A stretch of DNA of 44,921 bases, from positions 1-44,921 of the IMG/VR virus record IMGVR_UViG_3300036846_000225; one strand, 5' to 3'. The stretch comes from a virus. Below are positions 2,261 to 41,600 of this stretch, piece after piece; position 1 is the stretch's first letter, and the number at the start of each line of letters is the position of its first letter. The notes below the pieces were generated by a model that did no database searches, was not told where the DNA came from, and saw only the letters and a list, made by a program, of their open reading frames with translations. The position numbers and the translations under genes were made by a program.

Positions 2261-2521
2261 TCAGCCCCGCCCGTTGCGGCTCGCGACCGACGAGCTCAGT
2301 GGCGGGTGTGGGGGGACGTGACCGCTGCGCTCCAGGCGTTCTGCTGTCGCGATCATCTTGTCACAGATGGGAAGGCCCTGCTGCGTCCAGCCGCGCAGCA
2401 TGTAGGAGCGCACGGTCGACGCGGGTACGTCGGCCTCCTGCGCGAACGGCTTGAGCCCGTACCGCTCAACCACGCGACCGACCAACGCCATCCGCTCGGA
2501 AACTGTCTGCATGGGTCGCAT
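2261..2521 (-). CDS. Small helix-turn-helix regulator, Cro/repressor-like
   Basis: 86 residues. A lambda-repressor-type HTH is visible at about residues 22-50 (GLKPFAQEADVPASTVRSYM, then LRGW), and the tail is Pro/Ser-rich and probably disordered. It is the first gene of the minus-strand replication unit and diverges from the plus-strand early operon. That is the classic place for a Cro- or CI-like switch protein. The start may instead be Met4 at 2512, since no strong ribosome site separates the two choices. There is no peptidase or dimerisation domain, so a Cro-like or replication-control role is as likely as a lysogeny repressor. Confidence 0.7.
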   Translation of the reverse strand: MRPMQTVSERMALVGRVVERYGLKPFAQEADVPASTVRSYMLRGWTQQGLPICDKMIATAERLERSGHVPPHPPLSSSVASRNGRG

Positions 2522-2562
2522 TGGATACGCTCAAAAACGTGTGGATGAAACGCGAAAGCTCG

Positions 2563-2573
2563 CATTGACAATG
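2563..2573. promoter_or_regulatory. Possible operator, palindrome CATTGACAATG
   Basis: A perfect 11-bp odd palindrome (CATTG-A-CAATG) lies in the only gap between the divergent HTH gene and the early operon. It contains TTGACA on plus and TTGTCA on minus, so a dimer bound here would cover both possible -35 boxes. No good -10 is visible at 17 bp on plus, so the promoter itself is not proven. Confidence 0.35.
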
Positions 2574-2622
2574 GCTGAATACAGGGGCGAACCTTCGCGC
2601 GTTTAGCAAGGGAGACAAACCG

Positions 2623-3003
2623 GTGGTAGACGACGCCGTGCGTGACGTAACGCTGTTGATGATGGTGCGCCATATGCCCGAGGATAACTTTATGTCGCTA
2701 TGCGAGCGCGTGCTCAATGCTAAGGGTTTAACCCTAGGTAGCGATGAAAGCTTAGCTCACCAGCGGACATCTATGGACACTGGTGGACACGAGCGGACGA
2801 CCTGCATGATTTGCGGCGAGACCATGCCGAGGCTGCCGCTGACCACCAGGGTCGAGGCCATCGCCGGTCTGACCGCGTGTAAACGCTGTGTGGACGCGGC
2901 GCTCATGGCGTTGTTCTCAAGCCAGTCGGAAGCCGACCCGCTGGTCTCTCAACTGTCCGTGATATTGCGCCGCCATCGGCGCGCGGCTGGCAAGGCAGCC
3001 TGA
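2623..3003 (+). CDS. Hypothetical protein with CxxC...CxxC zinc-finger-like motif
   Basis: 126 residues. The GTG start at 2623 is supported by AAGGGAG about 8 bp upstream. The C-terminal half holds CMICGET and ACKRCVDAA, spaced about 26 residues apart, which suggests a four-cysteine zinc site. The N-terminal half has no recognisable domain and is less GC-rich than the rest of the operon; an internal ATG at 2773 is an alternative start. It is the first gene of the plus-strand early operon, directly before the ERF gene (3-bp gap). A regulatory or recombination-accessory role is possible, but the function is unknown. Confidence 0.6.
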   Translation: MVDDAVRDVTLLMMVRHMPEDNFMSLCERVLNAKGLTLGSDESLAHQRTSMDTGGHERTTCMICGETMPRLPLTTRVEAIAGLTACKRCVDAALMALFSSQSEADPLVSQLSVILRRHRRAAGKAA

Positions 3004-8568: not shown

Positions 8569-8865
8569 ATGCAGAGTGCAAAAGAACCCGGCAGGGCCAA
8601 GAGCAAGCCCGTCGTGGTCGAGCGGTTCGCTTACACTATGGACGAGGCCAGCGTCGTGCTCGGGATCGGGCGGTCGAGCCTTTACGAGCTCATCCGTGAC
8701 GGTGAGCTCACGCCCTTCAAGCTCGCCGGTCGCCAGCACATCCACCGGGACGACCTCAAAGCCTGCGCCGACCGCGCTTATGAGCGGGCGCATAGACATC
8801 CGCCGGGAGAGGCTGATCGTCATTCGACGCGACCGGATCGCAGAACGTCGACCAAGCCGACATGA
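8569..8865 (+). CDS. Excisionase-like HTH (MerR/HTH_17 type)
   Basis: 98 residues from ATG 8569, with AGGGGA 10-15 bp upstream. RFAYTMDEASVVLGIGRSSL, YELIRDGELTPFKLAGRQHI and HRDDLKACADRAYERA form the winged helix typical of phage excisionases and HTH_17 proteins. The C-terminal 25 residues are basic and Pro-rich. The gene ends 110 bp inside the convergent integrase gene, fitting a recombination directionality factor. A plain transcription regulator is the alternative. Confidence 0.75.
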   Translation: MQSAKEPGRAKSKPVVVERFAYTMDEASVVLGIGRSSLYELIRDGELTPFKLAGRQHIHRDDLKACADRAYERAHRHPPGEADRHSTRPDRRTSTKPT

Positions 8866-10168
8866 CGCCGCGCCGGGGCGCGCTCGGCATGGTCCGCGCG
8901 TAAGCCCGGTCGCTCTGATCCTTCTCGACGTGCGCGATGCACATCAGCACGAGGCTCTTCGACCAGCGGAAGTCGGTCATCTCTTCGCCGTCGATCACCA
9001 GCGGGCGACCGTCGTCACCGATCTGCGGGCGCGTCTGAGCGCGAGCCCAATCGGTGAACAGGGTCCGGAAGCCGTGGATGGTTTCCTTGTCGCCCGGCGC
9101 GGCGTCCTCGTCGCGGAAGCCGAGGGTCGCCAGCACATCGAGGATCGTCCCGTCGTCAAAGAACTCGTCCTTGAGTGAAGCCCGCGACGGGAAGATCGGC
9201 GCGTCGTCGGTCTTCGGCGGCGCGAGGAAGCGCGCCCGGTCGATCACCCGGATCATCTGCGGCGTGAGCGGCACCTCGAAGTGGGTCACCGACTTGTCGG
9301 CCCCTTTCATGTCGCCTTTCATTTCGGCGCGCGGGATCGCCAGGACGTTCCGCTCGCGGTCGACGTAGGACCAACGCAGTTGGGTCACCTCGGTCGACCG
9401 GAGCGCGGTCAGGATGATCAACTCGACGACAAGGAACGTCAGCGGGTCGCCGCAGTCGTTGCGGCCCCGGCGCAGCGCCGCCAGGAGCGCCGGGAGGTCT
9501 TCGATGGAGACCGCTTTCCGGTGCCGCTTCTCAGCGAGCTCGCCGACCATGCGGCGCAGGGTCTTGAGGCTGCATGGGTTCGCCCAATAGGGGTCGGTGA
9601 TCTTCCGGTCTTCGCGCGCCATGCGCAGGAACCGGGAGACGTACTTCGTCGCCTCGGTGATCGCGCCGCGCTTGTGCCAGTGGGGCCGCAGCGCCTCGGC
9701 GAGACCCTCGGTGGTGATCTCGTGCGGCTTGAGATCGGCGAGTGGGCCAAGCAGGGTCACGCCGTAGCGGATCGCGGCGGCGTAGCTGCGCGGGTTCTTC
9801 GGCATGTCGGCTTTCAGCCCGAGCACATACTGCCGATAGGTCGGCGCGCTGTCGGCCTTGAGCCGCGCCAGTCGGGCCGCGCTCTCATCCTTCTCGCGCT
9901 CCTGCTTCGGGCACTTGTTGTCCTTCACGAGCTCGGCGGCGGCGTGGCGGGCGCTGATCGCGCGGGAGAGCCCGAACGCCGTCGAGAACGGCCCGAGCGG
10001 GAGATAACGCTCTTTCGCATCGCCCGGCATCGTGTAGCGGAATTCCCAAATCCGCGACCCGCCGCGCACCACGCAGCGGAGGCCAGGAACCCCAACGACC
10101 GGGTGCTTTCCGGGTGGAAGTTTGGCGATATCGACGGGCGGTTTGATGGTGATTTTAACGGTCGGCAA
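8756..10168 (-). CDS. int: Tyrosine recombinase / phage integrase
   Basis: 470 residues. It has an N-terminal DUF4102-like arm-binding part, a SAM-like core-binding domain (about 115-200), then the catalytic domain. Catalytic residues are visible: Arg in LTALRSTEVTQL (about 258), His-x-x-Arg in IHGFRTLF (about 363), His in CIAHVEKDQ and the nucleophile Tyr in DRAYART (about 423). A basic tail follows (KRGRRRL). It catalyses integration and excision. Transcribed towards the early operon, its last 110 bp overlap the excisionase-like gene. Upstream lies a repeat-rich non-coding stretch that probably contains attP. Confidence 0.93.
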   Translation of the reverse strand: MPTVKITIKPPVDIAKLPPGKHPVVGVPGLRCVVRGGSRIWEFRYTMPGDAKERYLPLGPFSTAFGLSRAISARHAAAELVKDNKCPKQEREKDESAARLARLKADSAPTYRQYVLGLKADMPKNPRSYAAAIRYGVTLLGPLADLKPHEITTEGLAEALRPHWHKRGAITEATKYVSRFLRMAREDRKITDPYWANPCSLKTLRRMVGELAEKRHRKAVSIEDLPALLAALRRGRNDCGDPLTFLVVELIILTALRSTEVTQLRWSYVDRERNVLAIPRAEMKGDMKGADKSVTHFEVPLTPQMIRVIDRARFLAPPKTDDAPIFPSRASLKDEFFDDGTILDVLATLGFRDEDAAPGDKETIHGFRTLFTDWARAQTRPQIGDDGRPLVIDGEEMTDFRWSKSLVLMCIAHVEKDQSDRAYARTMPSAPRRGVMSAWSTFCDPVASNDDQPLPADVYAPAHKRGRRRL

Positions 10169-10198: not shown

Positions 10199-10225
10199 AA
10201 ATGCCCCCGAATTTGCCCCCGAATG
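10199..10225. repeat. Direct repeat R1 near integrase
   Basis: AAATGCCCCCGAATTTGC followed by CCCCGAATG. The unit itself is a tandem of TGCCCCCGAA(T). It matches R2 at 10413-10439 with two mismatches and lies 30 bp upstream of the integrase start. Such TGCCCCC tandem repeats are plausible arm-type integrase sites; this is an inference. Confidence 0.55.
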
Positions 10226-10292
10226 AAAGGTCACGGGTATGGACGCATATGGACGCTTAAGGCCCTATTTTGGGCATTTCCCCCTTAGAGAG

Positions 10293-10491: not shown

Positions 10492-10577
10492 TGCGACAGA
10501 ATGACATGCGCTTGCATTTTGTGCTTGCAGGATGTGTGTGCATCCCATACAAGGGTCTCAACAACGGAGACACGCAC
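10492..10577 (+). promoter_or_regulatory. Cassette promoter P1
   Basis: TGCGACAGAA at 10492, then 33 bp downstream the -35 TTGCAG (10525-10530), a 17-bp spacer and the -10 TACAAG (10548-10553). The leader TCTCAACAACGGAGACACGC runs to the ATG at 10578, with GGAGA as ribosome site. A second TTGCA lies exactly 13 bp before the -35 (10512). The spacer has a short GGATG/CATCC inverted repeat. Confidence 0.8.
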
Positions 10578-10781
10578 ATGACCGCCGCCGCCCTGAAAGT
10601 CACCCGCATCAACACTGGCGTTTATGACGTCCGCGCCAACGACCAGGGCTTCGAGCTTGAGCGCTTCCCTGATGGTAGCTGGCTGCTGTTTGAAACCCGC
10701 CAGGGCAAGAGCCGGGAATACCTCAACGACTTCGCCACGAAGCGCTGCGCCCTGGCGGCGCTCGCCCGCAGCTTCGCCTAA
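10578..10781 (+). CDS. Small hypothetical protein, first cassette gene
   Basis: 67 residues, ATG at 10578 behind promoter P1 and its GGAGA ribosome site. The sequence alternates strands and a C-terminal helix (VTRINTGVYDVRANDQGFEL, WLLFETRQGKSREYL, FATKRCALAALARSFA), like a small beta-sheet domain with one helix. I do not recognise a family. It is followed after 30 bp by a gene with its own GAGAGACAC leader. Confidence 0.7.
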   Translation: MTAAALKVTRINTGVYDVRANDQGFELERFPDGSWLLFETRQGKSREYLNDFATKRCALAALARSFA

Positions 10782-10811
10782 CCCAACCGCAAACGAGACC
10801 ACGAGAGACAC

Positions 10812-11171
10812 ATGACCCACGACAACCACGACCACGACACCGACGCCAAGATCGACCGCTGGCACGACGGTTACTTCGCGCACACGGAATGGAAGGTCTA
10901 CGACTGCGACAAGACCTATCAGGCGGCGTGCAAGGAGCCGGAGGCGGCTGCCGCCCTCGCGGGCTTCTACGGCCCCGGCGCGACCATCAAGCACGGTCAC
11001 GACGTGATCGTGTGGCGTGAGGGCTCCGAAGGCTTCCCGGCGGGCGAGAGCTACGACCGGTGCGCCGAGGTGATGCAGGCCCGCAAGCTCGCGGCCTATC
11101 ACGCCGGTTACGACCGTATCCACGGCGCGGGCGCTGCGGCTGCGCTCCTGGCTCGCCGGGGGGCCGCGTGA
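10812..11171 (+). CDS. Hypothetical protein, His/Asp-rich N-terminus
   Basis: 119 residues; the leader CACGAGAGACACATG supplies the ribosome site. The first ten residues (MTHDNHDHDT) are His/Asp-rich, which may bind metal. Two similar-looking helical stretches later have the pattern Y-A/H-G-Y-D/C (KIDRWHDGYFAHTEW, LAAYHAGYDRIHG). No known domain. It ends with the stop overlapping the next start (TGATG). Confidence 0.65.
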   Translation: MTHDNHDHDTDAKIDRWHDGYFAHTEWKVYDCDKTYQAACKEPEAAAALAGFYGPGATIKHGHDVIVWREGSEGFPAGESYDRCAEVMQARKLAAYHAGYDRIHGAGAAAALLARRGAA

Positions 11172-11443
11172 TGCAGGGCGACTGGATCAATTGGGGCTCG
11201 AAGGCGATGCGCGAGCTCAAGGCGCACCCGCTGGTCGAGGAGGTCGAGGGCGAGGGCATGGACCCCGGTCGGTTCTTCGTCCACCTCGTCGACGGGCACA
11301 CATGGGTCGACCACTACGGCGACCGGAACCCGCAGAACGTCGAGCACAGCCGCAGCTTCGGCGGGGCTGTGGAGGCGCTCAAGGCGGTCAAGCGGGCCGT
11401 CCCCTGCATCTGCACCGACTGCGAGAAAGCCTGCCCGAAGTAG
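11171..11443 (+). CDS. Small hypothetical protein with C-terminal Cys cluster
   Basis: 90 residues, ATG overlapping the previous stop. The body looks like a small alpha/beta domain (GRFFVHLVDGHTWVDHYG). The last 15 residues carry CICTDCEKAC, four cysteines in ten residues, which would suit a zinc or Fe-S site or an inter-chain cluster. Third gene of the first cassette. Function unknown. Confidence 0.65.
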   Translation: MQGDWINWGSKAMRELKAHPLVEEVEGEGMDPGRFFVHLVDGHTWVDHYGDRNPQNVEHSRSFGGAVEALKAVKRAVPCICTDCEKACPK

Positions 11444-11445
11444 GG

Positions 11446-11546
11446 TGCGACAAAACAGCATATGCACGCACGAGACGCTTGCACTCGTGCGTGCAGGCGT
11501 TTAAACACTGTCTCAACAACAACGCACCAACAAACGAGACAGACAC
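11446..11546 (+). promoter_or_regulatory. Cassette promoter P2 with 12-bp inverted repeat
   Basis: TGCGACAAAA at 11446; -35 TTGCAC at 11479-11484 (33 bp on), 17-bp spacer, -10 TAAACA at 11502-11507. A perfect 12-bp inverted repeat, TGCACGCACGAG (11463-11474) and CTCGTGCGTGCA (11484-11495), brackets the -35. The CA-rich leader ends in ACGAGACAGACACATG. The element begins 3 bp after the preceding stop. Confidence 0.82.
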
Positions 11547-11939
11547 ATGACCAAGCCCACCGCCTACTTCGTCGCCACCTTCTCGGACGGCAAGACCCTC
11601 GCCCGTAGCAGTGACCGCCGCGCCTACGCCTTCGCATGGAAGACCGTCGCCGCTGACGGTCAGTTTAGCGCCGGGTTCGCTGGCACCGAGGCGCTCGCCC
11701 GCGCCGCCGCCGAAACCAATGCAAACCAGTGGGCCGGTGTTGCGGACTTTAAGCGCATCACCACCCGCCCGCGTGGTGGGGCAACCCCGCAATTCTTCCG
11801 TTGGCAAGCCGAGCGCCTGCGCGACGCTGGCGGCAAGGCTGCCTATCTCGCCAAGGTGACCGCCGCCCGCGCCACGATCCGCACCTTCGTCGCGCCGGTC
11901 GTCGAAGTGGACCGCGCGACGTGGGAGGCGGCGCGCTAG
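11547..11939 (+). CDS. Hypothetical cassette protein
   Basis: 130 residues, only gene behind promoter P2. It starts with a beta-like segment (YFVATFSDGKTLARSSDRR), then helices rich in Ala/Arg. The N-terminal pattern (strand with FSDG, then S-x-R-x-Y-x-x-A) looks like small phage and plasmid proteins of unknown role. No catalytic residues are evident. Monocistronic, since the next promoter starts 8 bp after the stop. Confidence 0.65.
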   Translation: MTKPTAYFVATFSDGKTLARSSDRRAYAFAWKTVAADGQFSAGFAGTEALARAAAETNANQWAGVADFKRITTRPRGGATPQFFRWQAERLRDAGGKAAYLAKVTAARATIRTFVAPVVEVDRATWEAAR

Positions 11940-11946
11940 TCGCCCC

Positions 11947-12033
11947 TGCGACAAAATGGTCGGCTGCACACATCAGCGCTTGCAAGTGTGTGTGCAGCCG
12001 TTTACACATGGTCTCAACAACGGAGACACACAC
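11947..12033 (+). promoter_or_regulatory. Cassette promoter P3 with 12-bp inverted repeat
   Basis: TGCGACAAAA at 11947; -35 TTGCAA 11980-11985, 17-bp spacer, -10 TACACA 12003-12008. A perfect inverted repeat, CGGCTGCACACA (11961-11972) and TGTGTGCAGCCG (11989-12000), flanks the -35. The leader TCTCAACAACGGAGACACAC ends at ATG 12034. Confidence 0.82.
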
Positions 12034-12384
12034 ATGAACACCCTCGAAACCCTGCCGGTCGAAGTCCGGTTCGCTTGGATGCAGCGCGACGTCGACCGCC
12101 TGCGCGACTGGCTCGCCAATGAGGCCGACGTTCGCGACGGCGTTTTCTACTGGCAGTCGAACGGTCGCCCGGTCCCGCCGTCGAGCTTCAAGGAAGCTTT
12201 CGTCGCCCTGCCTGCCGGTCAACAAGCCGCGCACGACGCTGACCAGCGCGCCGCAATCGCCGAGTACCGCGAGGCGCGCAAGGACTGGAAGCCGAGCGCC
12301 GAGGAGATGTACGAAATGCGCGCCGCCTTCGGCACAGGCAAGACGGTCGTCGACATGATCACCGGGCAGAAGGTGCGGCTGTGA
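12034..12384 (+). CDS. Hypothetical cassette protein
   Basis: 116 residues; ATG 12034 follows the GGAGACACACAC leader. Mostly helical and charged (MQRDVDRLRDWLANEADVRD, ADQRAAIAEYREARKDW). A short GTGKT-like string (AFGTGKTVVDM, near residue 101) resembles a Walker A loop but lacks the surrounding strand and the protein is too small, so it is probably chance. The next gene starts 4 bp before its stop (GTGA). Confidence 0.65.
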   Translation: MNTLETLPVEVRFAWMQRDVDRLRDWLANEADVRDGVFYWQSNGRPVPPSSFKEAFVALPAGQQAAHDADQRAAIAEYREARKDWKPSAEEMYEMRAAFGTGKTVVDMITGQKVRL

Positions 12385-12677
12385 GGACGCCGTACCCCCA
12401 CCGCGCCGGATCGAGCGCCGCCGCGTGGCGGGCTCACATTCTCGACGTCCTGGCTTGGAAGGCCGAGCGCTACGGCGCGCCGGTATGGGATACCAACGCC
12501 GCCGACCTCGGGGCTCGCGGTCAGGTCGCGCTCGCCGCGCTGGTCGCCGAGGGGCTCGTGAGCTCCACCCGCCGGGGCGAGCTCATGCCGTCTTACCAGG
12601 GCACCGACTACTTCGGGCGCGGCAGCGGGTGGGTCAACGCCCGGCACGTCGAGCACATCAGGATCGAGGGGGCCTGA
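12381..12677 (+). CDS. Small protein, possible winged-helix fold
   Basis: 98 residues, GTG start overlapping the previous stop. AAWRAHILDVLAWKAERYG then GARGQVALAALVAEGLVSST and RRGELMPSY follow the helix-helix-wing order of a winged HTH. It could be a transcription regulator of the cassette array, but the DNA-recognition helix is not distinctive. The gene ends 2 bp before promoter P4. Confidence 0.5.
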   Translation: MRTPYPHRAGSSAAAWRAHILDVLAWKAERYGAPVWDTNAADLGARGQVALAALVAEGLVSSTRRGELMPSYQGTDYFGRGSGWVNARHVEHIRIEGA

Positions 12678-12679
12678 CC

Positions 12680-12774
12680 TGCGACAAAATGGATAGTGCG
12701 TGCAGTTTGTGCTTGCACATTCTGACTGCATCCCGCACAAGGGTCTCAACAACAACGCACACACGGCAACCGAC
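12680..12774 (+). promoter_or_regulatory. Cassette promoter P4
   Basis: TGCGACAAAA at 12680; -35 TTGCAC 12713-12718, 17-bp spacer, -10 CACAAG 12736-12741 (weaker than the others). A GTGCA lies 13 bp before the -35 (12700), like the tandem sites in P1, P6 and P7. Short inverted repeats TGCAGT/ACTGCA (12701-12706, 12725-12730) and TGTGC-TT-GCACA are present. The leader is TCTCAACAACAACGCACACAC. Confidence 0.75.
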
Positions 12775-13035
12775 ATGACCCGCCACCCCTACGAAGACGA
12801 CCGGCAGAGCGACATCAGCCACAACCGCCGGATGGCTGCCGAGGCCCGCACGATTGCCCGGCTTGAGCGCCAGGAGCGCGCAGCCGCCCCGCTGATCGGC
12901 GAGCTCCAAGGCGAGACCGGGTTCCGGTACTACATCAACATCCGCGACCGGGACGGGCGCATGACCGGCAAGATCAAGGAGAGCCGGTCGTACTTCGAGC
13001 TCGTCGAGTACCTCGCCCGCAACAACTACATCTAA
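12775..13035 (+). CDS. Small hypothetical cassette protein
   Basis: 86 residues. A charged N-terminal helix (HNRRMAAEARTIARLERQER) leads to a beta-rich part (GFRYYINIRDRDGRMTGKIK) and ends ELVEYLARNNYI. It resembles a small nucleic-acid- or protein-binding module but no family is recognised. A strong GC hairpin follows its stop (13042-13069), probably ending or slowing the transcript. Confidence 0.65.
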   Translation: MTRHPYEDDRQSDISHNRRMAAEARTIARLERQERAAAPLIGELQGETGFRYYINIRDRDGRMTGKIKESRSYFELVEYLARNNYI

Positions 13036-13041
13036 CCCTCA

Positions 13042-13069
13042 CGGGTCGGGGCCTCGACGCTCCGGCCCG
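13042..13069 (+). terminator. GC-rich hairpin after 12775-13035
   Basis: An 11-bp stem (13042-13052 with 13059-13069, two G-U pairs as RNA) with a CUCGAC loop, 7 bp after a stop codon. No U-tract follows, so it may be a pausing, processing or Rho-assisted site rather than a full terminator. The next gene (13099) has a ribosome leader but no promoter of the array. Confidence 0.5.
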
Positions 13070-13098
13070 CAACAACCCTAGGCAACCGAGAGACACAC

Positions 13099-13239
13099 AT
13101 GACCTACCTGCAACGCCAAACCGCCGATTACGTCGGGGCGCTTCTCTGCCTCGCCGCCGAGCTCACCGATCAGCCGTCAATGGCCCGGCTGATGGTCGCG
13201 ATCTACTTCCACACGCCCGGCGACAGGTTCGACGCCTGA
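13099..13239 (+). CDS. Very small hypothetical protein
   Basis: 46 residues from ATG 13099 after the leader CGAGAGACACACATG, one of the best matches to the leader seen at most cassette genes. The product (TYLQRQTADYVGALLCLAAE, then MARLMVAIYFHTPGD) is one or two amphipathic helices. Its stop overlaps the next start (TGATG), which supports translation. Function unknown. Confidence 0.6.
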   Translation: MTYLQRQTADYVGALLCLAAELTDQPSMARLMVAIYFHTPGDRFDA

Positions 13240-14000
13240 TGCCCGCCGCGCTCAAACTCCGGAAGCCCTTGCACCCCAAGGGCGACCGCAACCGCTACTG
13301 CGGCCCGTCCGCGATCTCGATCCTGACCGGGATGGGGACCGGCGAAGCCGCCCGGCTGATCCGCAAGGTCAGCGGCGCAGAACAGGTCAAGGGGACTTCG
13401 CCGGTCGCGGTGATGATGGCGCTCGGGCGCTGCGGCATCTTTTCGACGCGCCGCGCCACGCTGACGGGCAAGCCGACCTTCGCGCAGTGGCTCAGCGCCA
13501 CGCACGGCAAACGAGGCGGGCGGGTCTTCCTGCTGATCGCCGGGAACCACTTTCAGGTCGTCAGCGGCAACCGCTACGCCTGCGGGCGCACGAACGATGT
13601 GGTCGGGATCGACCACCCGAGCGTGAAGCGCCGGGCGCGGGTCGAGCGGGTGATCGAGGTTCACGCGCCCGAGGGCGTCACGATCCCGCAGGAGGCCCGC
13701 AAACCGCCGCCTAGCGCCCAGGCCCGCGTCAAGGCGTCAGCCCGCTACAGGGCGCAGAAACTGGCCCGCGCGTGGGGTCTGAGGATCGACCGCGAGCACG
13801 ACGGCTGCGGCTACCTATGGTGGGTCTACGGACCGGACGGCGTGTACGACGAAGACGGCGAGGATGACCCGTGCTGCGGCGCGCACTCCTGCACCGACTG
13901 GAGCGACGTGATGCAGTGCGTCACCGCCTACGTCGAAGACTTAACCGAGCGCGGCCTGTCGCCCGCCACCATCACCAGCAACGAAGGACACACCCAATGA
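13239..14000 (+). CDS. Putative papain-like cysteine peptidase fold protein
   Basis: 253 residues. RNRYCGPSAISILTG puts Cys21 at the start of a helix, and FLLIAGNHFQVVSGN puts His104 on a strand. That Cys...His order and spacing fit C39/papain-like or transglutaminase-like folds. I recall similar NRYCGPxA proteins as unannotated phage products. The C-terminal part (about 160-253) has WGLRIDREHDGCGYLWWVYG and a Cys-rich DDPCCGAHSCTDW, perhaps a second domain for metal or substrate. No signal peptide, so cytoplasmic. Possible roles are cleavage or modification of a host protein; activity is not proven. Confidence 0.55.
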   Translation: MPAALKLRKPLHPKGDRNRYCGPSAISILTGMGTGEAARLIRKVSGAEQVKGTSPVAVMMALGRCGIFSTRRATLTGKPTFAQWLSATHGKRGGRVFLLIAGNHFQVVSGNRYACGRTNDVVGIDHPSVKRRARVERVIEVHAPEGVTIPQEARKPPPSAQARVKASARYRAQKLARAWGLRIDREHDGCGYLWWVYGPDGVYDEDGEDDPCCGAHSCTDWSDVMQCVTAYVEDLTERGLSPATITSNEGHTQ

Positions 14001-14269
14001 CCACCAACGCCGACAACTTCCGCGCCCGCGTCGCCGACCAAGCCTGGGAGCGCGGGATCACCGCCATCGACTTCGCGACCCGGCTCGGGGCGCGGCAGCT
14101 TTCCGACCAACCTTGCGAGGCATGGTCCGGCGAGGGTGAAGGGTTTCCCTGGCGCTTTCCGGACGGCAGCGTCGCCATGATCCGGGGCGACGGCCACGAG
14201 GTCGGGGTCCAGAACCGGAGCATCTCGGCGCGCATCGCACGCCAGTACGCCGGGGCCGACGCGCAATGA
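13997..14269 (+). CDS. Small hypothetical protein
   Basis: 90 residues, ATGA overlap with the peptidase-like gene. The middle (SGEGEGFPWRFPDGSVAMIR, GDGHEVGVQNR) looks like a small beta domain as in phage proteins that sense or bind nucleotides, but no family is recognised. It overlaps the next gene by 4 bp. Confidence 0.62.
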   Translation: MTTNADNFRARVADQAWERGITAIDFATRLGARQLSDQPCEAWSGEGEGFPWRFPDGSVAMIRGDGHEVGVQNRSISARIARQYAGADAQ

Positions 14270-14916
14270 AGCCGGTCGCCACCATCGAGGTCCCGCCGAA
14301 AATGCGGCTGCTCGCCAAGGACGCACGCGGCTACCCTGTGCCCTTCATCGTGCAACGCGATCTCACCGGGCGGGCGTTCTTCGTGATCAACGATACCGTG
14401 AAGGTCAACAAGACCGCCCGGCAAAAGCTGTGCGGCATCTGCGGACAGAAGTTGGAGCGCGACATCTGGCTGGTCGGCGGTCCCGGCGGCGCGTTCCACG
14501 AGGCCGGGGCGTTCATCGACGGGCCGATGCATAAAGCCTGCGCGACCTACGCGCTCAAGGTCTGCCCCTACATCGCCGGGCGCTACTCGAAACGGATCGA
14601 CGCCACGCTCGCCAAGCACGGCAAGTGGCCCCCGCACATGCGGATGCTCGCCGAGGAAAGCATGATACCCGAACAACCGCCGTTCTTCGTCCTGGCGCGC
14701 ACCCGGCGGGTCGCCTTCGAGGTCAGGCCGCAAGGCACCCACCGCTTCGCGCCCGAGCGCCCCTGGCTGGCTGTGGAATTCTGGCGGCGTGGGATCGAGA
14801 TCACCGAGCCCGAGGCGCGCGATCTCCTGGCGGCGTCGGAGCGATGGGGGTGGACCGCCGACGACCTGATGCATTGGCCGGTCGGGGGTGTGGCAAAACA
14901 GCAAGCGCATACATAG
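14266..14916 (+). CDS. Zinc-binding-like hypothetical protein
   Basis: 216 residues. LCGICGQKLERDIWLVGGPG and then GPMHKACATYALKVCPYI give CxxC...HxxC...C, a pattern I recognise from uncharacterised proteins of phages and high-GC bacteria (CWVCG...HRDCAEY type). It probably binds zinc. The last ten residues (GGVAKQQAHT) are read through the upstream box of promoter P5, so the coding end and the promoter overlap by about 28 bp. Function unknown. Confidence 0.65.
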   Translation: MKPVATIEVPPKMRLLAKDARGYPVPFIVQRDLTGRAFFVINDTVKVNKTARQKLCGICGQKLERDIWLVGGPGGAFHEAGAFIDGPMHKACATYALKVCPYIAGRYSKRIDATLAKHGKWPPHMRMLAEESMIPEQPPFFVLARTRRVAFEVRPQGTHRFAPERPWLAVEFWRRGIEITEPEARDLLAASERWGWTADDLMHWPVGGVAKQQAHT

Positions 14917-14977
14917 GTGCTTGCAAACGTGTGTGCGAGCCTCTAGATACGCTCTCACACAGCAACGAAAGACACAG
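14889..14977 (+). promoter_or_regulatory. Cassette promoter P5
   Basis: Diverged box TGTGGCAAAA (14889), -35 TTGCAA 14921-14926 (32 bp on), 17-bp spacer, -10 TAGATA 14944-14949. An imperfect inverted repeat, CGCATACA (14906-14913) and TGTGTGCG (14930-14937), pairs 7 of 8. The leader ends AACGAAAGACACAGATG. The first part lies inside the end of the upstream gene. Confidence 0.72.
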
Positions 14978-15190
14978 ATGACCGACGCCGATCTCAAACG
15001 CTTGAACCTGACCGCCGACACGGTGCTCAAGGCCGCGCAAGGCCGGTGGGAGCCGTGGAAGGCTGTCGCCGCACTGGTGAGCGCCGCCGCCGCCTTCATG
15101 GCCGCAGGCGCGGCGATCTACGCCATCGGGCAGCACAACGGGGAACGCAACCCCGTGGCTATCCACAGCGCCCCACCTCCGGCGCGCTGA
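14978..15190 (+). CDS. Small single-pass membrane protein
   Basis: 70 residues. A charged N-terminal helix (LKRLNLTADTVLKAAQGRW) is followed by one membrane segment (VAALVSAAAAFMAAGAAIYA) and a short polar tail. It is the first gene behind promoter P5 and comes two genes before the superinfection-immunity protein. It might take part in the same surface-exclusion function; that is inference. Confidence 0.68.
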   Translation: MTDADLKRLNLTADTVLKAAQGRWEPWKAVAALVSAAAAFMAAGAAIYAIGQHNGERNPVAIHSAPPPAR

Positions 15191-15495
15191 TGCCCCGCAA
15201 TTCCAGCCTCGCTCCGACCGGCATCGAGGTCCGCACCACGCCATCCGACATTTCGGTGATCTTCGATCTCGACGGTCGGACCTACATCGCCACCTTCACC
15301 GCGCAGACCCGCTGGCTCTACCGGGTCGCGGTGCTCAAGCACACCGCCAAAGGCACGACCTTCTGGCAGGAGCTCGGCGCAGGCGCGACCCTGGCGCGGG
15401 TCGCCGCCCTGGCTGCCGAGCACATCGCCACCGACCCCTTCCGCACCGACGCCGAGCTCTGGCGCGCTGTCGCCGCGCGGTACACCACCCGCTGA
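15190..15495 (+). CDS. Hypothetical cassette protein
   Basis: 101 residues, ATG overlapping the previous stop. The sequence reads as a beta-rich domain (GIEVRTTPSDISVIFDLDGR, TYIATFTAQTRWLYRVAVL) with a C-terminal helix. No membrane segment or catalytic motif. No family recognised. It sits between two membrane-protein genes in the P5 cassette. Confidence 0.62.
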   Translation: MPRNSSLAPTGIEVRTTPSDISVIFDLDGRTYIATFTAQTRWLYRVAVLKHTAKGTTFWQELGAGATLARVAALAAEHIATDPFRTDAELWRAVAARYTTR

Positions 15496-15551
15496 CCGCC
15501 GCAACATGATCCACATCACCAACCCTGAAACAATCTGAAAGACCTGACCCG

Positions 15552-15791
15552 ATGTCCCTGATCCTGATCTTCCTTGTCGCGCTCTACTTCCTGCCGACCA
15601 TCATCGCCGCGTTCCGCGAACACTCGCAATTTCTGCCGATCCTACTGCTCGACGTGTTCCTCGGGTGGACACTGGTCGGGTGGGTCGTGGCGCTGGTGTG
15701 GTCGGTGACCAACCAAGACCCGAAAACGGTCTACGTGACCCACCTCCCGCCGCAGCCGACCGGCAAGCGAAACCCCTACGACCAAGTGTGA
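15552..15791 (+). CDS. Superinfection immunity protein (T4 Imm-like family)
   Basis: 79 residues with two membrane segments (LILIFLVALYFLPTIIAAF and LLLDVFLGWTLVGWVVALVW). The LPTIIA...H and FLGWTL-GWVVALVW signatures match the superinfection immunity family (PF14373). T4 Imm blocks DNA injection by related phages at the inner membrane. In a temperate phage this would protect a lysogen, which fits its place in the promoter-array region. The tail has PPQPTGKRNPYDQV. Its actual exclusion range is unknown. Confidence 0.88.
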   Translation: MSLILIFLVALYFLPTIIAAFREHSQFLPILLLDVFLGWTLVGWVVALVWSVTNQDPKTVYVTHLPPQPTGKRNPYDQV

Positions 15792-15799
15792 TAATCCGG

Positions 15800-15907
15800 C
15801 GCGAGCTTGCAGGCAATGCTTGCAACTATGTGAGCACCGCTTTACACGCCGATCAACACAAGGGGCTGCGAAGGGCAGCCCCGCCGCAAAACACGAAAGA
15901 GACGACT
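15800..15907 (+). promoter_or_regulatory. Cassette promoter P6
   Basis: -35 TTGCAA 15820-15825, 17-bp spacer, -10 TACACG 15843-15848. No TGCGACA box is seen. A TTGCA lies 13 bp before the -35 (15807), making an almost perfect inverted repeat TTGCAGGCA-A-TGCTTGCAA (15807-15825). The spacer contains ATGTGAGC, shared with the hairpin at 40277-40294. The leader is longer and ends GAAAGAGACGACTATG. Confidence 0.72.
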
Positions 15908-16414
15908 ATGAGTGAAGCGACTGAGATCACCACCTACACCAACCGCAGCAACGCCGCCCGCGCCGCGCGGGTCGCGCTCGGCGGCGACAAGATCAGCGGG
16001 GTCCACTTCCGCGTGACCGAGATCGACGCCGACAAGTTTGCCTGGGAAGTACTCGCCCAGGACGCACCCGCCGCGCCGGAAGACCCGGCGGCGGATGCGC
16101 CGACCGCCGCGCCACAGGCCGACGCTCCGAAGGCGAAGGCGGCGAAGCCTGCCAAGACCGCGAAGGCGAAGGGCGAGCGCAAGATCGCCGACAACGGCGA
16201 CGGTCTGCCGAAGGGCAAACTCGGTCAGGTGATCGGCATGATGCAGCGACCCGAGGGCGCGACCAACGCGCAGATGCAGGCCGCGACGGGCTGGCAGCCG
16301 CACACCGTTCGCGGGGCCATCGCGGGCGCGATCAAGGTCAAACTCGGCCTGTCGGTGACCGCTGAGAAGACCGACGCCGGGCTGGTTTACCGGATCGCCA
16401 AGGTCGCCGCCTGA
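15908..16414 (+). CDS. DUF3489-domain protein
   Basis: 168 residues. An N-terminal small domain (TYTNRSNAARAARVALGGDK and following) is joined by an Ala/Pro/Lys-rich linker (about 65-100) to a C-terminal DUF3489 domain: KGKLGQVIGMMQRPEGATNA, TGWQPHTVRGAIAGAI, KVKLGLSVTAEK, GLVYRI. DUF3489 resembles a winged helix and is common in alphaproteobacterial genomes and phages, so DNA binding is likely. It is the only gene of the P6 cassette and a candidate regulator of the array. Confidence 0.88.
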   Translation: MSEATEITTYTNRSNAARAARVALGGDKISGVHFRVTEIDADKFAWEVLAQDAPAAPEDPAADAPTAAPQADAPKAKAAKPAKTAKAKGERKIADNGDGLPKGKLGQVIGMMQRPEGATNAQMQAATGWQPHTVRGAIAGAIKVKLGLSVTAEKTDAGLVYRIAKVAA

Positions 16415-16422
16415 CCGGAAGG

Positions 16423-16528
16423 TGCGACACCCACGCGACACCGCTGCTTGCAAAGAATGCTTGCAGCGGTGTTTGCGTATGGTGTAAACAGGTTCTCACG
16501 TTCAAACGCACACGAGAGACCTGACTTC
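16423..16528 (+). promoter_or_regulatory. Cassette promoter P7 with 10-bp inverted repeat
   Basis: TGCGACACCC at 16423, -35 TTGCAG 16461-16466, 18-bp spacer, -10 TAAACA 16485-16490. A perfect inverted repeat, ACACCGCTGC (16438-16447) and GCAGCGGTGT (16463-16472), and tandem TTGCA sites 13 bp apart (16448, 16461). The leader ends CACACGAGAGACCTGACTTC before ATG 16529. Confidence 0.78.
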
Positions 16529-17215
16529 ATGCCCTCCACCGAAACCAAAGCCCCCGCCGCCGCGACCAGCGCGATCCGCTTGCGCGAGGACTGGCTCAAC
16601 CAACTCGCCGCCGCCTTCATGATCGAGATGACCGCGCGCTGCGGCCTGACCTTCCCCCCCGTCCGAGTGACCTGCGGCTTCCCGAGCCGGGGCGGCGAGA
16701 TGGGCGGCAAGACCCGCGTGCGCGGTCAGTGCTGGTCGGCGGAAGCCTCGGAAGACAAGCACGCCGAGATTTTCATCAGCCCGGTCGAGGCGGACATCCC
16801 GACCATCGCCGCGATCCTGGCGCACGAGCTCACGCACGCCGCGATCCCCGAAGCCGGGCACGGCAAGCCGTTTCAGATGGTCATGAAAAAGCTCGGGCAC
16901 GTCGCGCCCTTCACGAGCGCGGTGCCGACCGCCAGCTTCGTCGAGTGGACGCAGCCGCACCTCGACCGGGTCGGCAGTTACCCGCACGCGATGCTGGTCG
17001 CGATGCGCGCGGTCGCCGCGCCCAAGAAACAGACCGCCCGCATGATCAAGGCGACCTGCGACTGTGACGGCTGCGGCTACACGGTGCGCCTCGCCCGCAA
17101 GTGGATCGTCGAAGTCGGCGCGCCGATCTGCCCGAAGCACCTCGTGCCGATGACGGTCGAGGGGCTCGACGACGAGCTCGGCGATGGCGACGCGGTGCCG
17201 GAAGGGGAGGGCTGA
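16529..17215 (+). CDS. SprT-like zinc metalloprotease
   Basis: 228 residues. The active site AHELTHAAIPEAGH (about residues 98-111) has HExTH plus a third His eight residues on, as in SprT/Spartan-like families. A C-terminal zinc ribbon follows: CDCDGCGYTVR ... APICPKH (about 175-210). Length and order fit SprT-like proteins. Spartan-type enzymes cut DNA-bound proteins; here the target is unknown, perhaps DNA-protein adducts or a host regulator. Single gene of the P7 cassette. No signal peptide. Confidence 0.85.
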   Translation: MPSTETKAPAAATSAIRLREDWLNQLAAAFMIEMTARCGLTFPPVRVTCGFPSRGGEMGGKTRVRGQCWSAEASEDKHAEIFISPVEADIPTIAAILAHELTHAAIPEAGHGKPFQMVMKKLGHVAPFTSAVPTASFVEWTQPHLDRVGSYPHAMLVAMRAVAAPKKQTARMIKATCDCDGCGYTVRLARKWIVEVGAPICPKHLVPMTVEGLDDELGDGDAVPEGEG

Positions 17216-17221
17216 GCCGGG

Positions 17222-17332
17222 TGCGACAAAACGATAGCTGCACGCACACATCGCTTGCAAGTGTGCGTGCAGGCGTTTAAACATCCTCTCAACACCGGGG
17301 CGCACCGCCCCGCACCACACAGGACCGACCCG
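17222..17332 (+). promoter_or_regulatory. Cassette promoter P8 with 12-bp inverted repeat
   Basis: TGCGACAAAA at 17222; -35 TTGCAA 17255-17260 (33 bp on), 17-bp spacer, -10 TAAACA 17278-17283. Perfect inverted repeat CTGCACGCACAC (17238-17249) and GTGTGCGTGCAG (17261-17272) around the -35. The leader departs from the usual one after TCTCAACA and ends CACACAGGACCGACCCGATG, with AGGA as ribosome site. Confidence 0.82.
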
Positions 17333-17530
17333 ATGTACGCCTCTTACGAAACCTGCCCCGTCACCTTCGCGAAGCGCCTGACCGGCGAGACCTTCGCCAC
17401 GCTCGGCGAGGCGGTGATCTTCCACACCTACGCGGGCGGCTTCGCTGAGATCGACGCCGACCACGACGCGGCTGACGTCTTCACGCGCGGCGGCGTGGTG
17501 CTCGGCATCGAGCGCGCTGCCAATGCCTAA
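17333..17530 (+). CDS. Small hypothetical protein
   Basis: 65 residues behind promoter P8. CPVTFAKRLTGETFATLGEA and VIFHTYAGGFAEIDADHDAA suggest a small beta-alpha domain; the short first part (YASYETCPV) holds one Cys. No family recognised. It overlaps the next gene by 8 bp. Confidence 0.62.
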   Translation: MYASYETCPVTFAKRLTGETFATLGEAVIFHTYAGGFAEIDADHDAADVFTRGGVVLGIERAANA

Positions 17531-18062
17531 CCTATACGATTGGGAGGCGGTCAGCCCGACGACCGGCGAGCGCCGGTCGGGCGGCGCGGTCACCCGCGAC
17601 GAAGCCCGCCGGGCTGCCGAGCAGGCCAGGGCCGAGCTCGGGCTCGACACCGTGATCCGGGTGACCCACCCGCGCGGGGCCGTGTGGACCGCCAGGATCG
17701 CCGGATGGGCGAAGGGCGGACGCGGGTCGACCTTGGTTTGGGAGCCGGAGGCGCTGACCCCACGCAAGCACCAGCCCGCCCGCGAGCCCGCGCCACGGTC
17801 GGTGCCGAACGCCGCGCAGCGGGCCGAGCACGCCCGCCGCATCATGTGGCGCAGGCTCGACGAAGCCCGTGCGCTGCACGACCGGATCGAGGCCGGTCAC
17901 GCCTTCGCTTGGGAGCCTGTCAGGCTGACAAATCTGATCCGCGAGGCGCGCACATACAGCCGCGCTGCTCGGGCCTTAATGCCGCGCCGCGAGTGCTTGC
18001 AAATCGGTGCTTGCGGCTCTACATACAGCATTGCAAACAACCAAAGGAACACCGAGATATGA
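17523..18062 (+). CDS. Hypothetical basic protein
   Basis: 179 residues. The N-terminal 60 look like a small domain (YDWEAVSPTTGERRSGGAV ... VIRVTHPRGAVWTARIAGW). A Pro/Arg linker and a basic helical C-terminus (AEHARRIMWRRLDEARALHD) follow. The last 22 residues are read through promoter P9, so this end may be incidental. The stop overlaps the next ATG. Confidence 0.6.
   Translation: MPNLYDWEAVSPTTGERRSGGAVTRDEARRAAEQARAELGLDTVIRVTHPRGAVWTARIAGWAKGGRGSTLVWEPEALTPRKHQPAREPAPRSVPNAAQRAEHARRIMWRRLDEARALHDRIEAGHAFAWEPVRLTNLIREARTYSRAARALMPRRECLQIGACGSTYSIANNQRNTEI
17995..18058 (+). promoter_or_regulatory. Cassette promoter P9 (internal to upstream gene)
   Basis: -35 TTGCAA 17997-18002, 17-bp spacer, -10 TACATA 18020-18025, with a second TTGC 14 bp after the first. 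No TGCGACA box. The leader ATTGCAAACAACCAAAGGAA gives an AAAGGA ribosome site before ATG 18059. It lies wholly inside the end of the 17523-18062 reading frame. Confidence 0.6.
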
Positions 18063-18283
18063 GCTCCGCCACTGCCGCCGCGAAAAAGCCCGTCCAGAGG
18101 CCCTCACCGACCTCCTCGAAGGTGTCGGCGGTGCAGATTGTCACCCGCGTCACCGATGCCAACCGGGAGCGCGTCAAGGCGCTCGCCGCGCGGGAGGGTC
18201 TGACGATCCAGCAACTCGGCGTCTACGCTTGGAGCCTCGCGCTGCAAGAATACGGCGAGCAACCGCTGCCGGATGCCGAATGA
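18059..18283 (+). CDS. Small protein, possible ribbon-helix-helix regulator
   Basis: 74 residues. After a Ser/Pro/Lys-rich N-terminus, VSAVQIVTRVTDANRERVKA, LAAREGLTIQQLGVYAWSLA and LQEYGEQ give one strand followed by two helices, the order of an RHH (Arc/MetJ-type) domain. It has its own promoter of the array (P9). If it is an RHH dimer it is a candidate for binding the array's inverted repeats. Strength of the fold call is modest. Confidence 0.5.
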   Translation: MSSATAAAKKPVQRPSPTSSKVSAVQIVTRVTDANRERVKALAAREGLTIQQLGVYAWSLALQEYGEQPLPDAE

Positions 18284-39774: not shown

Positions 39775-39857
39775 GGTCAGAATGTCGCGGCGTGCAATTG
39801 TGCTTGCAGCCGTGTGTGCAGACGTTTAAACACATTCACACACAACGAGAGACACCC
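39775..39857 (+). promoter_or_regulatory. Cassette promoter P10, inside the late region
   Basis: -35 TTGCAG 39804-39809, 17-bp spacer, -10 TAAACA 39827-39832, a GTGCA 12 bp before the -35 (39792). Upstream TCAGAATGTC resembles the GACAGAATGACA of P1. The leader CACACAACGAGAGACACCC reaches ATG 39858. It is over 21 kb from the rest of the array but has the same strand and structure, so a cassette has probably moved here. Confidence 0.75.
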
Positions 39858-40088
39858 ATGTATCCGATGCTTGAGCAACTTTCGCCCACCACCGTTTCGG
39901 TGCTCGACGGGCTTAACCGCTGCCTCGCGCGGCGCGGTGTGAGCCTTGAGCGGGCCTCGTGGGTCGCCAGCCTGCAACGCAGTGTCGCCGAGGACGTCCG
40001 CGCCGGGCGCTACACGAAAGACCAGGGCGCGGCGCTCTTGCACATCCACCGCGCCTACGGGCGCGAAGGCAAGAAAGCGCTCGCCTAG
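39858..40088 (+). CDS. Small cassette protein in the late-gene block
   Basis: 76 residues behind promoter P10. MLEQLSPTTVSVLDGLNRCL, ARRGVSLERASWVASLQRSV, RYTKDQGAALLHIHRAYGRE form three helices; the protein is basic. No family recognised. It points against the late genes and converges with a small minus-strand gene, the two stops overlapping in TAG/CTA. Confidence 0.65.
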   Translation: MYPMLEQLSPTTVSVLDGLNRCLARRGVSLERASWVASLQRSVAEDVRAGRYTKDQGAALLHIHRAYGREGKKALA

Positions 40089-40294: not shown

Positions 40295-40408
40295 AACCTC
40301 GCTTTCGTCACGCATCGTCACTGTCAGTCATTTAATGATCGGCGCTCGACGCGCGTCGACCGTCGCGCCATCGCTTGCAAACCTCTGTTTGATCAGGGAG
40401 CCTTTGCG

Positions 40409-40966
40409 ATGGATAAGCATCCCGGCCTTGGGCCTGCCGACGACTTCCGAGTGTTTTGGCGTGACCGCTGGTATCGCCATGAGACCGAGGTCAGGTGGGC
40501 TTACTTTTTTGGCGAGCTCCGCGTCGGTGCCGAATACGAGCCGACCAGCGTGAAACTCCTCTGTGGCTGCGGACACCGACCGGATTTCTATCTCGGCGCG
40601 CTCGATGCATGGGTTGAGATCAAAGCCGGTCGACCCACGCGCGCCGAGCTCAACAAGGCCAAGGCGCTCGCGCAGGCGACAGGGAAGACCTCAATGGTGT
40701 TTTCTGGCGCGCCTTCACTTCGCCCGCTGTGCTGGCTTTTCCGGGGTTGCGACGGGCGCGAAGTCGGGCCGCTGACCCTCAACGACTGGCTGCCATACGA
40801 CGGCCTCGCGCTATCTAGCGAGCGCGGCCTATTCCTCGTGCAAGTCGGCGGCAGTATCGCCACTCATGGTCACGCGCCGGAGATGAGCGACTTTATCCGC
40901 GAGCTCGTCGCCGCAACTATCCAATTGGCGCTGATGCCCAAAGACCGGCTCCGGTTGGCAGGGTAG
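40409..40966 (+). CDS. Putative PD-(D/E)XK nuclease (plus-strand island)
   Basis: 185 residues from ATG 40409 with AGGGAG upstream. After YRHETEVRWAYFFGELRVGA, the string CGCGHRPDFYLGALDAWVEIKAGRP has D...ExK (about residues 59-71), the PD-(D/E)XK active site as in Vsr-like or RmuC-like folds, preceded by an E in the first helix. ELNKAKALAQATGK and GRPTRA fit. GC is lower than the surrounding structural genes. The pair with the downstream gene, opposite to the late genes, is typical of a moron or defence cassette. Confidence 0.6.
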   Translation: MDKHPGLGPADDFRVFWRDRWYRHETEVRWAYFFGELRVGAEYEPTSVKLLCGCGHRPDFYLGALDAWVEIKAGRPTRAELNKAKALAQATGKTSMVFSGAPSLRPLCWLFRGCDGREVGPLTLNDWLPYDGLALSSERGLFLVQVGGSIATHGHAPEMSDFIRELVAATIQLALMPKDRLRLAG

Positions 40967-40976
40967 GAGGTCCGCG

Positions 40977-41600
40977 ATGCACGACGACGATTATCCGCCG
41001 CCGCCGCCTCCGCCGGACCGAGTGCCTCTTTGGCTCGATTACAATGGGCTCGTGCGGCGCGAAATATGGCCCTTTACCCGCGAAGCCTTTACCCGCATCC
41101 GCCGCAAGCACCCTGGCAAATTAAGACAGGTAAAGCTCGGCAACACTGTCGGTTTCGACGGCTATGAGGTCGGCGATTTTGTCAGGTGGCTCGGCGAACA
41201 AGATGCGTGGGAGGCTGGTGCGCCAGAGCGAAAGCGGGCCGCAGACGAGCTTGAGGCATTCATCCGGCACCAACACGACATCGCAACCAAAGTTGTCCAA
41301 TGGTGCGAGAAGTGGCCGGATGTATTGCAGCGACTAAGTCAGGTTAATTTTCCATTCATGGCTGTTGGTGACGAGGTTTTTCTCGTTGACTTTCAGCCAT
41401 ATAGCGGCGCGGGTTATAGGATTGTTGACCCTGAAAAGGTCACTGCCGACCTTCCAATCTGTCGCCCTCCAGTCACTTTAAGCCCCGTGCGAGTAGTGGA
41501 AAGCTATGATCACTGGCGCATTCGCGCCAGTGATCGAAGCATCCATGTGTTTTTCTACTGCGACACTCTAGGCAATGAGTTTCACCGCATTGACGACTAG
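40977..41600 (+). CDS. Hypothetical protein with HTH-like N-terminus (plus-strand island)
   Basis: 207 residues, AGGAGG ribosome site 6 bp before ATG 40977. It starts with HDDDY and a polyproline, then FTREAFTRIRRKHPGKLRQV, KLGNTVGFDGYEVGDFVRWL, which reads like a winged HTH (excisionase/MerR type). The C-terminal 110 residues (IATKVVQWCEKWPDVLQRLS, VFLVDFQPYSGAGYRIVDPE) match nothing I know. A perfect 12-bp hairpin lies in its last 100 bp. GC is clearly lower. Function unknown, perhaps a partner or regulator of the nuclease. Confidence 0.6.
   Translation: MHDDDYPPPPPPPDRVPLWLDYNGLVRREIWPFTREAFTRIRRKHPGKLRQVKLGNTVGFDGYEVGDFVRWLGEQDAWEAGAPERKRAADELEAFIRHQHDIATKVVQWCEKWPDVLQRLSQVNFPFMAVGDEVFLVDFQPYSGAGYRIVDPEKVTADLPICRPPVTLSPVRVVESYDHWRIRASDRSIHVFFYCDTLGNEFHRIDD
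41508..41535. repeat. Perfect 12-bp inverted repeat inside a coding region
   Basis: GATCACTGGCGC (41508-41519), loop ATTC, GCGCCAGTGATC (41524-41535). It encodes DHWRIRASDR near the end of the island's second gene. As RNA it would be a very stable hairpin about 65 bases before the stop. It may terminate or stabilise the transcript, or be a protein target or element end. Confidence 0.7.

What the first reader, a model, noticed from the sequence alone, without database searches (positions are those of the whole stretch)
10492..18058. Array of nine related promoter elements driving an accessory-gene region
Nine intergenic elements (10492, 11446, 11947, 12680, 14889, 15800, 16423, 17222, 17995) share the -35 TTGCAN, a 17-bp spacer (18 once) and a -10 like TAAACA/TACACA. 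In P1-P4 and P8 a TGCGACA box lies exactly 33 bp before the -35; P5 has a diverged box at 32 bp and P7 one at 38 bp. Most have a CA-rich leader. Each heads one to several small unknown genes. This is the layout of a coordinately regulated cassette regulon, like repeated start-associated elements in some actinophages but with different sequence. I do not know a description of this one.
Basis: partly seen in the sequence, partly recalled or inferred. Interest (0 to 1): 0.85.

Follow-up and report, generated by a model that had tools for sequence, protein, structure and literature searches.

The report
Repeated phage promoters heading accessory genes
A temperate bacterial virus (its nearest relatives are phages and prophages of Alphaproteobacteria) carries ten copies of the same small promoter-plus-binding-site module, one in front of each block of optional genes; a related virus has twelve copies with the genes reshuffled, which suggests a shared switch for swappable gene cassettes, much like an element known only from some mycobacterial viruses.

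Summary
The nine elements are real and there is a tenth at 39802, in front of a lone + strand gene inside the - strand structural operon. In leave-one-out scoring, no other position on either strand of the window reaches any of the nine elements scored (P7, with its 18-bp spacer, was not scored). A related phage (IMG/VR 3300036832_000301) has twelve more copies, found with a model built only from this window. The 22 copies share: TGCGAC box; GCTTGCA (-35); an inverted copy of the same half-site (TGYRNGC) at +11 in the spacer; TANACA -10 at +25; CA-rich leader, often ending in a start-associated GAGACACACATGACC. Genes are reshuffled between the two phages; P7/Q8 and P5/Q6 are seams with homologous DNA upstream and unrelated genes downstream. 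No such array turned up in sampled alphaproteobacterial genomes. Best reading: host sigma-70 promoters overlapped by an operator for a trans-acting, probably phage-encoded regulator, heading exchangeable accessory cassettes. The closest known thing is the SAS/ESAS system of cluster K mycobacteriophages: same architecture, different sequence. Regulator and timing are unknown; RHH (18059-18283) and DUF3489 (15908-16414) proteins are candidates. New variant of a known kind.

The parts
10492..10577 (+). Element P1: box 10492, half-site A 10510, B/-35 10523, half-site C at +12, poor -10 (TACAAG), leader to ATG 10578
11446..11546 (+). Element P2: box 11446, B/-35 11477, C at +11, -10 TAAACA at +25; perfect 12-bp inverted repeat 11463-11474/11484-11495
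11947..12033 (+). Element P3: box 11947, B 11978, C at +11, -10 TACACA; perfect 12-bp inverted repeat 11961-11972/11989-12000
12680..12774 (+). Element P4: box 12680, B 12711, weak -10 (CACAAG); heads 12775-14916
14888..14977 (+). Element P5: diverged box, A 14907, B 14919, C at +11, -10 TAGATA
15805..15907 (+). Element P6: A 15805, B 15818, C at +11, -10 TACACG; no box; heads the DUF3489 gene
16423..16528 (+). Element P7: boxes 16423 and 16434, A 16446, B 16459, 18-bp spacer, -10 TAAACA; perfect 10-bp inverted repeat 16438-16447/16463-16472; heads the SprT-like gene
17222..17332 (+). Element P8: box 17222, B 17253, C at +11, -10 TAAACA; perfect 12-bp inverted repeat 17238-17249/17261-17272
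17995..18058 (+). Element P9: B 17995, second GCTTGC 18009, -10 TACATA; heads the RHH gene; ortholog present in G006
39789..39857 (+). Element P10 (new): GCTTGCA 39802, C at +11, -10 TAAACA; heads a lone 76-aa + strand gene inside the - strand structural operon
10803..10815 (+). Start-associated leader GAGAGACACATGA without promoter (others at 13090-13102 and 13987)
15908..16414 (+). DUF3489 protein; candidate regulator; among the relatives compared, ortholog found only in G006
   Evidence: Pfam 4.8e-22; low-confidence model with three helices and two strands in the domain
18059..18283 (+). Probable ribbon-helix-helix protein, 74 aa, under P9; candidate regulator
   Evidence: weak Pfam RHH matches; conserved family; model and fold search
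39858..40088 (+). 76-aa gene headed by P10, no family match
8756..10168 (-). Integrase, left border of the accessory region
   Evidence: PHROG 1, 2.4e-24
2261..2521 (-). 86-aa putative HTH protein (by eye) at the divergent left control region; no family match; upstream region lacks the element

Best explanation
Each element is a host sigma-70 type promoter (GCTTGCA as -35, 17-bp spacer, TANACA -10) whose -35 and spacer are overlapped by an operator made of repeats of one 7-8 bp half-site (TGCNYRCA): copy A direct at -12/-13, copy B being the -35 itself, copy C inverted at +11. A trans-acting regulator, most likely phage-encoded, binds it, probably competing with sigma; TGCGAC at about -65 is a further site of fixed geometry, for a second factor or as part of an activator site. 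Transcription would start about 7 nt after the -10 into a CA-rich leader; in the most compact copies the start codon lies 55-57 nt after GCTTGCA. One regulator could thus switch all blocks of accessory genes together, and the modules also serve as homology seams at which gene blocks are exchanged. Shown: the repeated sequence, its geometry, its position in front of gene blocks, its conservation in a second phage, the reshuffling. Inferred: promoter activity, existence and sign of the regulator, timing, the recombination route.
For: Ten elements far above chance. Twelve more in G006 found with a model from the window alone. Columns at +11 to +18, inside the -35/-10 spacer where sigma needs no sequence, carry 0.65-1.24 bits; GCTTGCA is intact in 20 of 22; A at +28 in 22 of 22. 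TGYRNGC at +11 in 17 of 22. Box at exactly -31 in five window elements and exactly -30 in seven of eight G006 array elements; the double box of P7 (-36/-25) shifts to -35/-24 in Q8. Start codon 55-57 nt after GCTTGCA in P1, P3, P10 and seven G006 elements. No match to the E. coli sigma-70 consensus otherwise in the region. The left divergent control region is not among the element's matches, so the regulator is probably not the putative repressor there. P7/Q8: upstream gene 86% identical, element 78%, downstream gene near the shuffled level; P5/Q6: 72%, 58%, near the shuffled level. Window P4-block genes lie under Q3, Q1 and Q5 in G006. The phage encodes Erf, a RecE-like exonuclease and a RuvC-like resolvase.
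Against: No expression or binding data. -35 TTGCA and -10 TANACA are weak against the E. coli consensus, and P1 and P4 lack a good -10. Half-site C is missing or moved in five elements; A varies by 1 bp. The RHH candidate also occurs in relatives without detectable elements; the DUF3489 candidate rests on two phages. Only G006 was found with a comparable array; the others hold one to four diverged copies or none.
Confidence: 0.6

Rival explanations
1. Plain constitutive promoters, copied by duplication; the box and half-sites are only traces of common descent.
For: Some elements are close copies (P2/P8, P3/P8, P1/P4). Several L016 promoters have TTGAC or TTTCAC in place of B and lack C.
Against: The spacer half-site and a fixed box distance are kept across diverged copies and in a second phage where the distance is shifted by one base throughout; neutral copies should decay in the spacer first.
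Confidence: 0.2
2. Promoter plus stem-loop cassettes (like T4 PeSLs), in which the inverted repeat ends transcription from the previous block.
For: Perfect 10-12 bp inverted repeats in P2, P3, P7, P8 and Q8, with arms that match their own partner better than swapped partners (6.20 against 5.09, sd 0.22, 0 of 300); these elements lie just after stop codons; gene shuffling.
Against: No intrinsic terminator at any element on the + strand, and fewer in the region than in shuffles (2 against 7.3, both on the other strand). Shuffle-normalised folding equal on both strands (mean z -1.29 and -1.35). A 10-bp or longer perfect repeat in only 5 of 22.
Confidence: 0.08
3. The elements are mainly recombination sites (att- or attC-like) and the promoter is secondary.
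For: They sit at junctions of homologous and non-homologous DNA, and the region varies from about 1.7 to 8.8 kb between relatives.
Against: No integron integrase was seen among the annotated genes and the only tyrosine recombinase found is the phage integrase; conserved -10, leader and start distance are not expected of pure recombination sites; homologous recombination by Erf/RecE suffices.
Confidence: 0.07

Closest known systems
SAS/ESAS of cluster K mycobacteriophages (TM4, Adephagia; PMC3203893, PMC11373665)
   Same: Two-tier layout: a start-associated sequence at many starts, and at a subset an intergenic sigma-A-like promoter with 17-18 bp spacing that carries an inverted repeat; heads accessory genes including SprT; absent from the immunity region; regulator unknown.
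   Different: No shared sequence (model R1 finds nothing in the Adephagia segment; GGGATAGGAGCCC absent from the window). ESAS has one long repeat with -35 and -10 inside its arms; here there are three half-sites plus an upstream box. The ESAS arm TGCATACA/TGTATGCA fits the half-site TGCNYRCA, noticed after the fact.
PeSL cassettes of T4-like phages (Arbiol 2010, Comeau 2014, cited in PMC4503421; originals not held)
   Same: Repeated early-promoter modules at junctions of shuffled genes.
   Different: PeSLs pair a promoter with a terminator; no terminator is detectable here.
Cluster A mycobacteriophage stoperators (PMC9283540 abstract)
   Same: Many repeated phage sites for one regulator.
   Different: Asymmetric sites that stop elongation; here the sites overlap promoters and contain an inverted pair. 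Not tested further.
Moron genes with their own promoter (established concept)
   Same: P10 heads a lone gene against the direction of the structural operon.
   Different: Here the promoter module is shared by many genes in one genome.

Membership tests
Cluster K SAS/ESAS | 13-bp GGGATAGGAGCCC at start codons | tested here: not met
   0 copies on either strand; a different start-associated sequence is present
Cluster K SAS/ESAS | Intergenic repeated sigma-70-like promoter, 17-18 bp spacing | tested here: met
   by sequence only:
Cluster K SAS/ESAS | 15-17 bp imperfect inverted repeat, spanning -35 to -10 | tested here: not met
   Repeats of 10-12 bp in 5 of 22, flanking the -35; Adephagia arms for comparison
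Cluster K SAS/ESAS | Sequence similarity to ESAS | tested here: not met
   R1 finds no match in the Adephagia segment L102
T4 PeSL | Stem-loop terminator joined to the promoter | tested here: not met
T4 PeSL | Located at junctions of shuffled genes | tested here: met
Sigma-70 promoter | -35/-10 hexamers at 16-18 bp | tested here: inconclusive
   -10-like TANA[CT] at +25/+26 in most elements, P1 and P4 weak; below the E. coli consensus threshold
Sigma-70 promoter | Transcription start 5-10 nt after the -10 | not testable with these tools
   needs 5'-end RNA mapping
Phage operator of one regulator | Symmetric or repeated site shared by the promoters | tested here: met
   half-site C at a fixed +11 from B in 17 of 22
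Phage operator of one regulator | A cognate protein binds it | not testable with these tools
   candidates only

The most novel reading that the evidence does not exclude
A self-contained promoter-operator-leader module that spreads through a temperate phage genome and its relatives as a plug-in unit, placing any captured gene at once under one dedicated regulator that is not the immunity repressor; this arrangement arose independently in this phage group and in cluster K mycobacteriophages.
Probability: 0.35. Interest if true: 0.75.

Novelty: new variant of a known kind. Interest (0 to 1): 0.6.

Why it matters
The unknown regulator of ESAS-type promoters is an open question in mycobacteriophages (PMC11373665). 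A second, sequence-unrelated system with 22 sites, a defined half-site and two candidate regulators makes the question testable. The element also marks accessory cassettes: genes that follow it in related phages are candidates for host takeover or counter-defence functions.

Tried and rejected
Exact pattern TGCGACAAAA-N19-24-GCTTGCA in viral contigs: nine hits; none showed the -10 and leader, and I took them as chance. GCTTGCA-N4-TGYGTGC-N7-9-TANACA in viral contigs: only G006 and two copies of one unrelated stretch. R1 in 399 genomes of the Sphingobium family and 385 of its class: three weak matches; the strongest was read and is a tandem GTGCTTGCACCT repeat; large batches use stricter filters that lose weak matches. 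Sigma-54 (no GG at -24; checked by eye on P2 and P7 only). RNA hairpin function: raw energies favour the sense strand (p 0.006) but shuffle-normalised z does not. Intrinsic terminators: none at the elements. Rfam: none. attC: no integron integrase seen. Caulobacter phage Kronos, hit by the tail protein: no elements. RHH protein: best PHROG E 0.008, no phage or plasmid tblastn match; model of moderate confidence whose best PDB matches are RHH proteins at insignificant E. DUF3489 model too poor for a fold search.

Full report
Setting. The window is a whole IMG/VR record of 44,921 bp classed as linear with the genes of a temperate tailed phage: AAA_25/Toprim-like replication protein (2-1834 -), RuvC-like resolvase (1735-2256 -), Erf, MTase and RecE-like exonuclease on +, integrase 8756-10168 -, and structural genes on - from about 20.5 to 43.5 kb. 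The array lies between the integrase and the RHH gene. In relatives that interval ranges from about 1.7 kb in L017 (0.87 kb to SprT) through 3.5-4.2 kb to about 8.8 kb in G006, so it is a variable accessory region.

The element. The nine sites are as described, and there is a tenth at 39802. It heads a 76-aa + strand gene (39858-40088) between - strand structural genes. No non-member position in the window reaches the leave-one-out score of any of the nine elements scored; P7 was not scored because of its 18-bp spacer.

A second phage. R1, built only from the ten window elements, finds twelve elements in G006 (59,931 bp; exonuclease 89% identical), one in G011, one in L018 and two in L016. It finds none in the held records of seven other relatives (G007-G010, G012-G014), L017 or the two Sphingobium genomes. 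Sampled alphaproteobacterial genomes gave only isolated weak matches.

Anatomy of 22 elements. GCTTGCA is intact in 20 of 22. Inside the spacer, TGYRNGC, an inverted copy of the same half-site, begins at +11 in 17 of 22. A further direct copy lies at -12 or -13 in many. The -10 follows at +25, then a TCAACAAC-like leader. In the most compact copies the start codon is 55-57 nt after GCTTGCA. TGCGAC lies at -31 in five window elements and -30 in seven of the eight G006 array elements, and the odd double box of P7 is kept in Q8 with the same one-base shift. GAGACACACATGACC-like leaders also precede starts without promoters (10812, 13099, 13997): about seven distinct sites in the array against about one expected in the whole window.

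Inverted repeats. P2, P3, P7 and P8 hold perfect 10-12 bp inverted repeats around the -35, with differing arms. Arms fit their own partner better than swapped partners, but five elements drive this. Strand-normalised folding does not favour RNA and there is no terminator. I therefore read them as a by-product of paired half-sites, perhaps sharpened by template-switch correction; that last step is conjecture.

Reshuffling. Window block P4 (12775, 13239, 13997, 14266) is spread over Q3, Q1 and Q5 in G006; the 14978-like gene (short match only) moved from P5 to Q1. At P7/Q8 the upstream gene is 86% identical, the element 78%, and the downstream gene (SprT or a 73-aa protein) is near the shuffled level; P5/Q6 shows the same pattern more weakly. 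These two elements are thus seams. At P9 and its counterpart both flanks are conserved.

Regulator. The left divergent control region does not match the element, so the regulator is probably not the putative repressor there. Inside the array, each under its own element, are a probable RHH protein and a DUF3489 protein. Among the relatives compared the latter was found only in the two phages with full arrays. Neither is tested.

Comparison. The layout matches SAS/ESAS of cluster K mycobacteriophages: start-associated sequence, a subset with an upstream sigma-A-like promoter and inverted repeat, SprT among the targets, and an immunity repressor judged unlikely as regulator. Sequence and repeat geometry differ, so it works like an ESAS but is not one. 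T4 PeSLs share the shuffling but need a terminator.

Limits. Promoter activity, regulator, sign and timing of regulation are inferred. The host is not known: closest proteins point to Alphaproteobacteria (Sphingobium genomes for SprT; Caulobacter phages for the tail protein; Roseobacter, Erythrobacter and Brevundimonas phages for 13239-14000).

Noticed in passing
L065 16694-16752 and 17618-17676 (relative G008): A nearly identical intergenic stretch with a GACGGGCGGC...GCCGCCCGTC hairpin and an ATGCTCAAC leader stands before two accessory genes: another phage of the group seems to have its own, different repeated start element.
   Followed up: partly
window 40409-41600 +: Two + strand genes against the structural operon, with lower local GC (0.59 at 41-42 kb); the first is weakly like a Holliday junction resolvase (E 1.8e-4). 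A lone GCTTGCA lies at 40373 upstream.
   Followed up: partly
window 2500-2640: Divergent control region conserved in relatives, with CGCATTGACA and GCGAANNTTCGC; possibly the repressor operators of this phage group.
   Followed up: partly
window 13239-14000: 253-aa protein with RYCGPSAISILTG at its start, resembling a C39-like peptidase motif by eye; relatives in Roseobacter, Erythrobacter and Brevundimonas phages; no Pfam match.
   Followed up: partly
L090 4190-6790 (G006 53.9-55.8 kb): G006 has four further elements, two of them divergent, in a second accessory region that the window does not contain.
   Followed up: partly
window 10220-10270 and L017 9280-9375: Repeated TGGACGC motifs upstream of the integrase in both phages, possibly integrase arm-type sites.
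   Followed up: no
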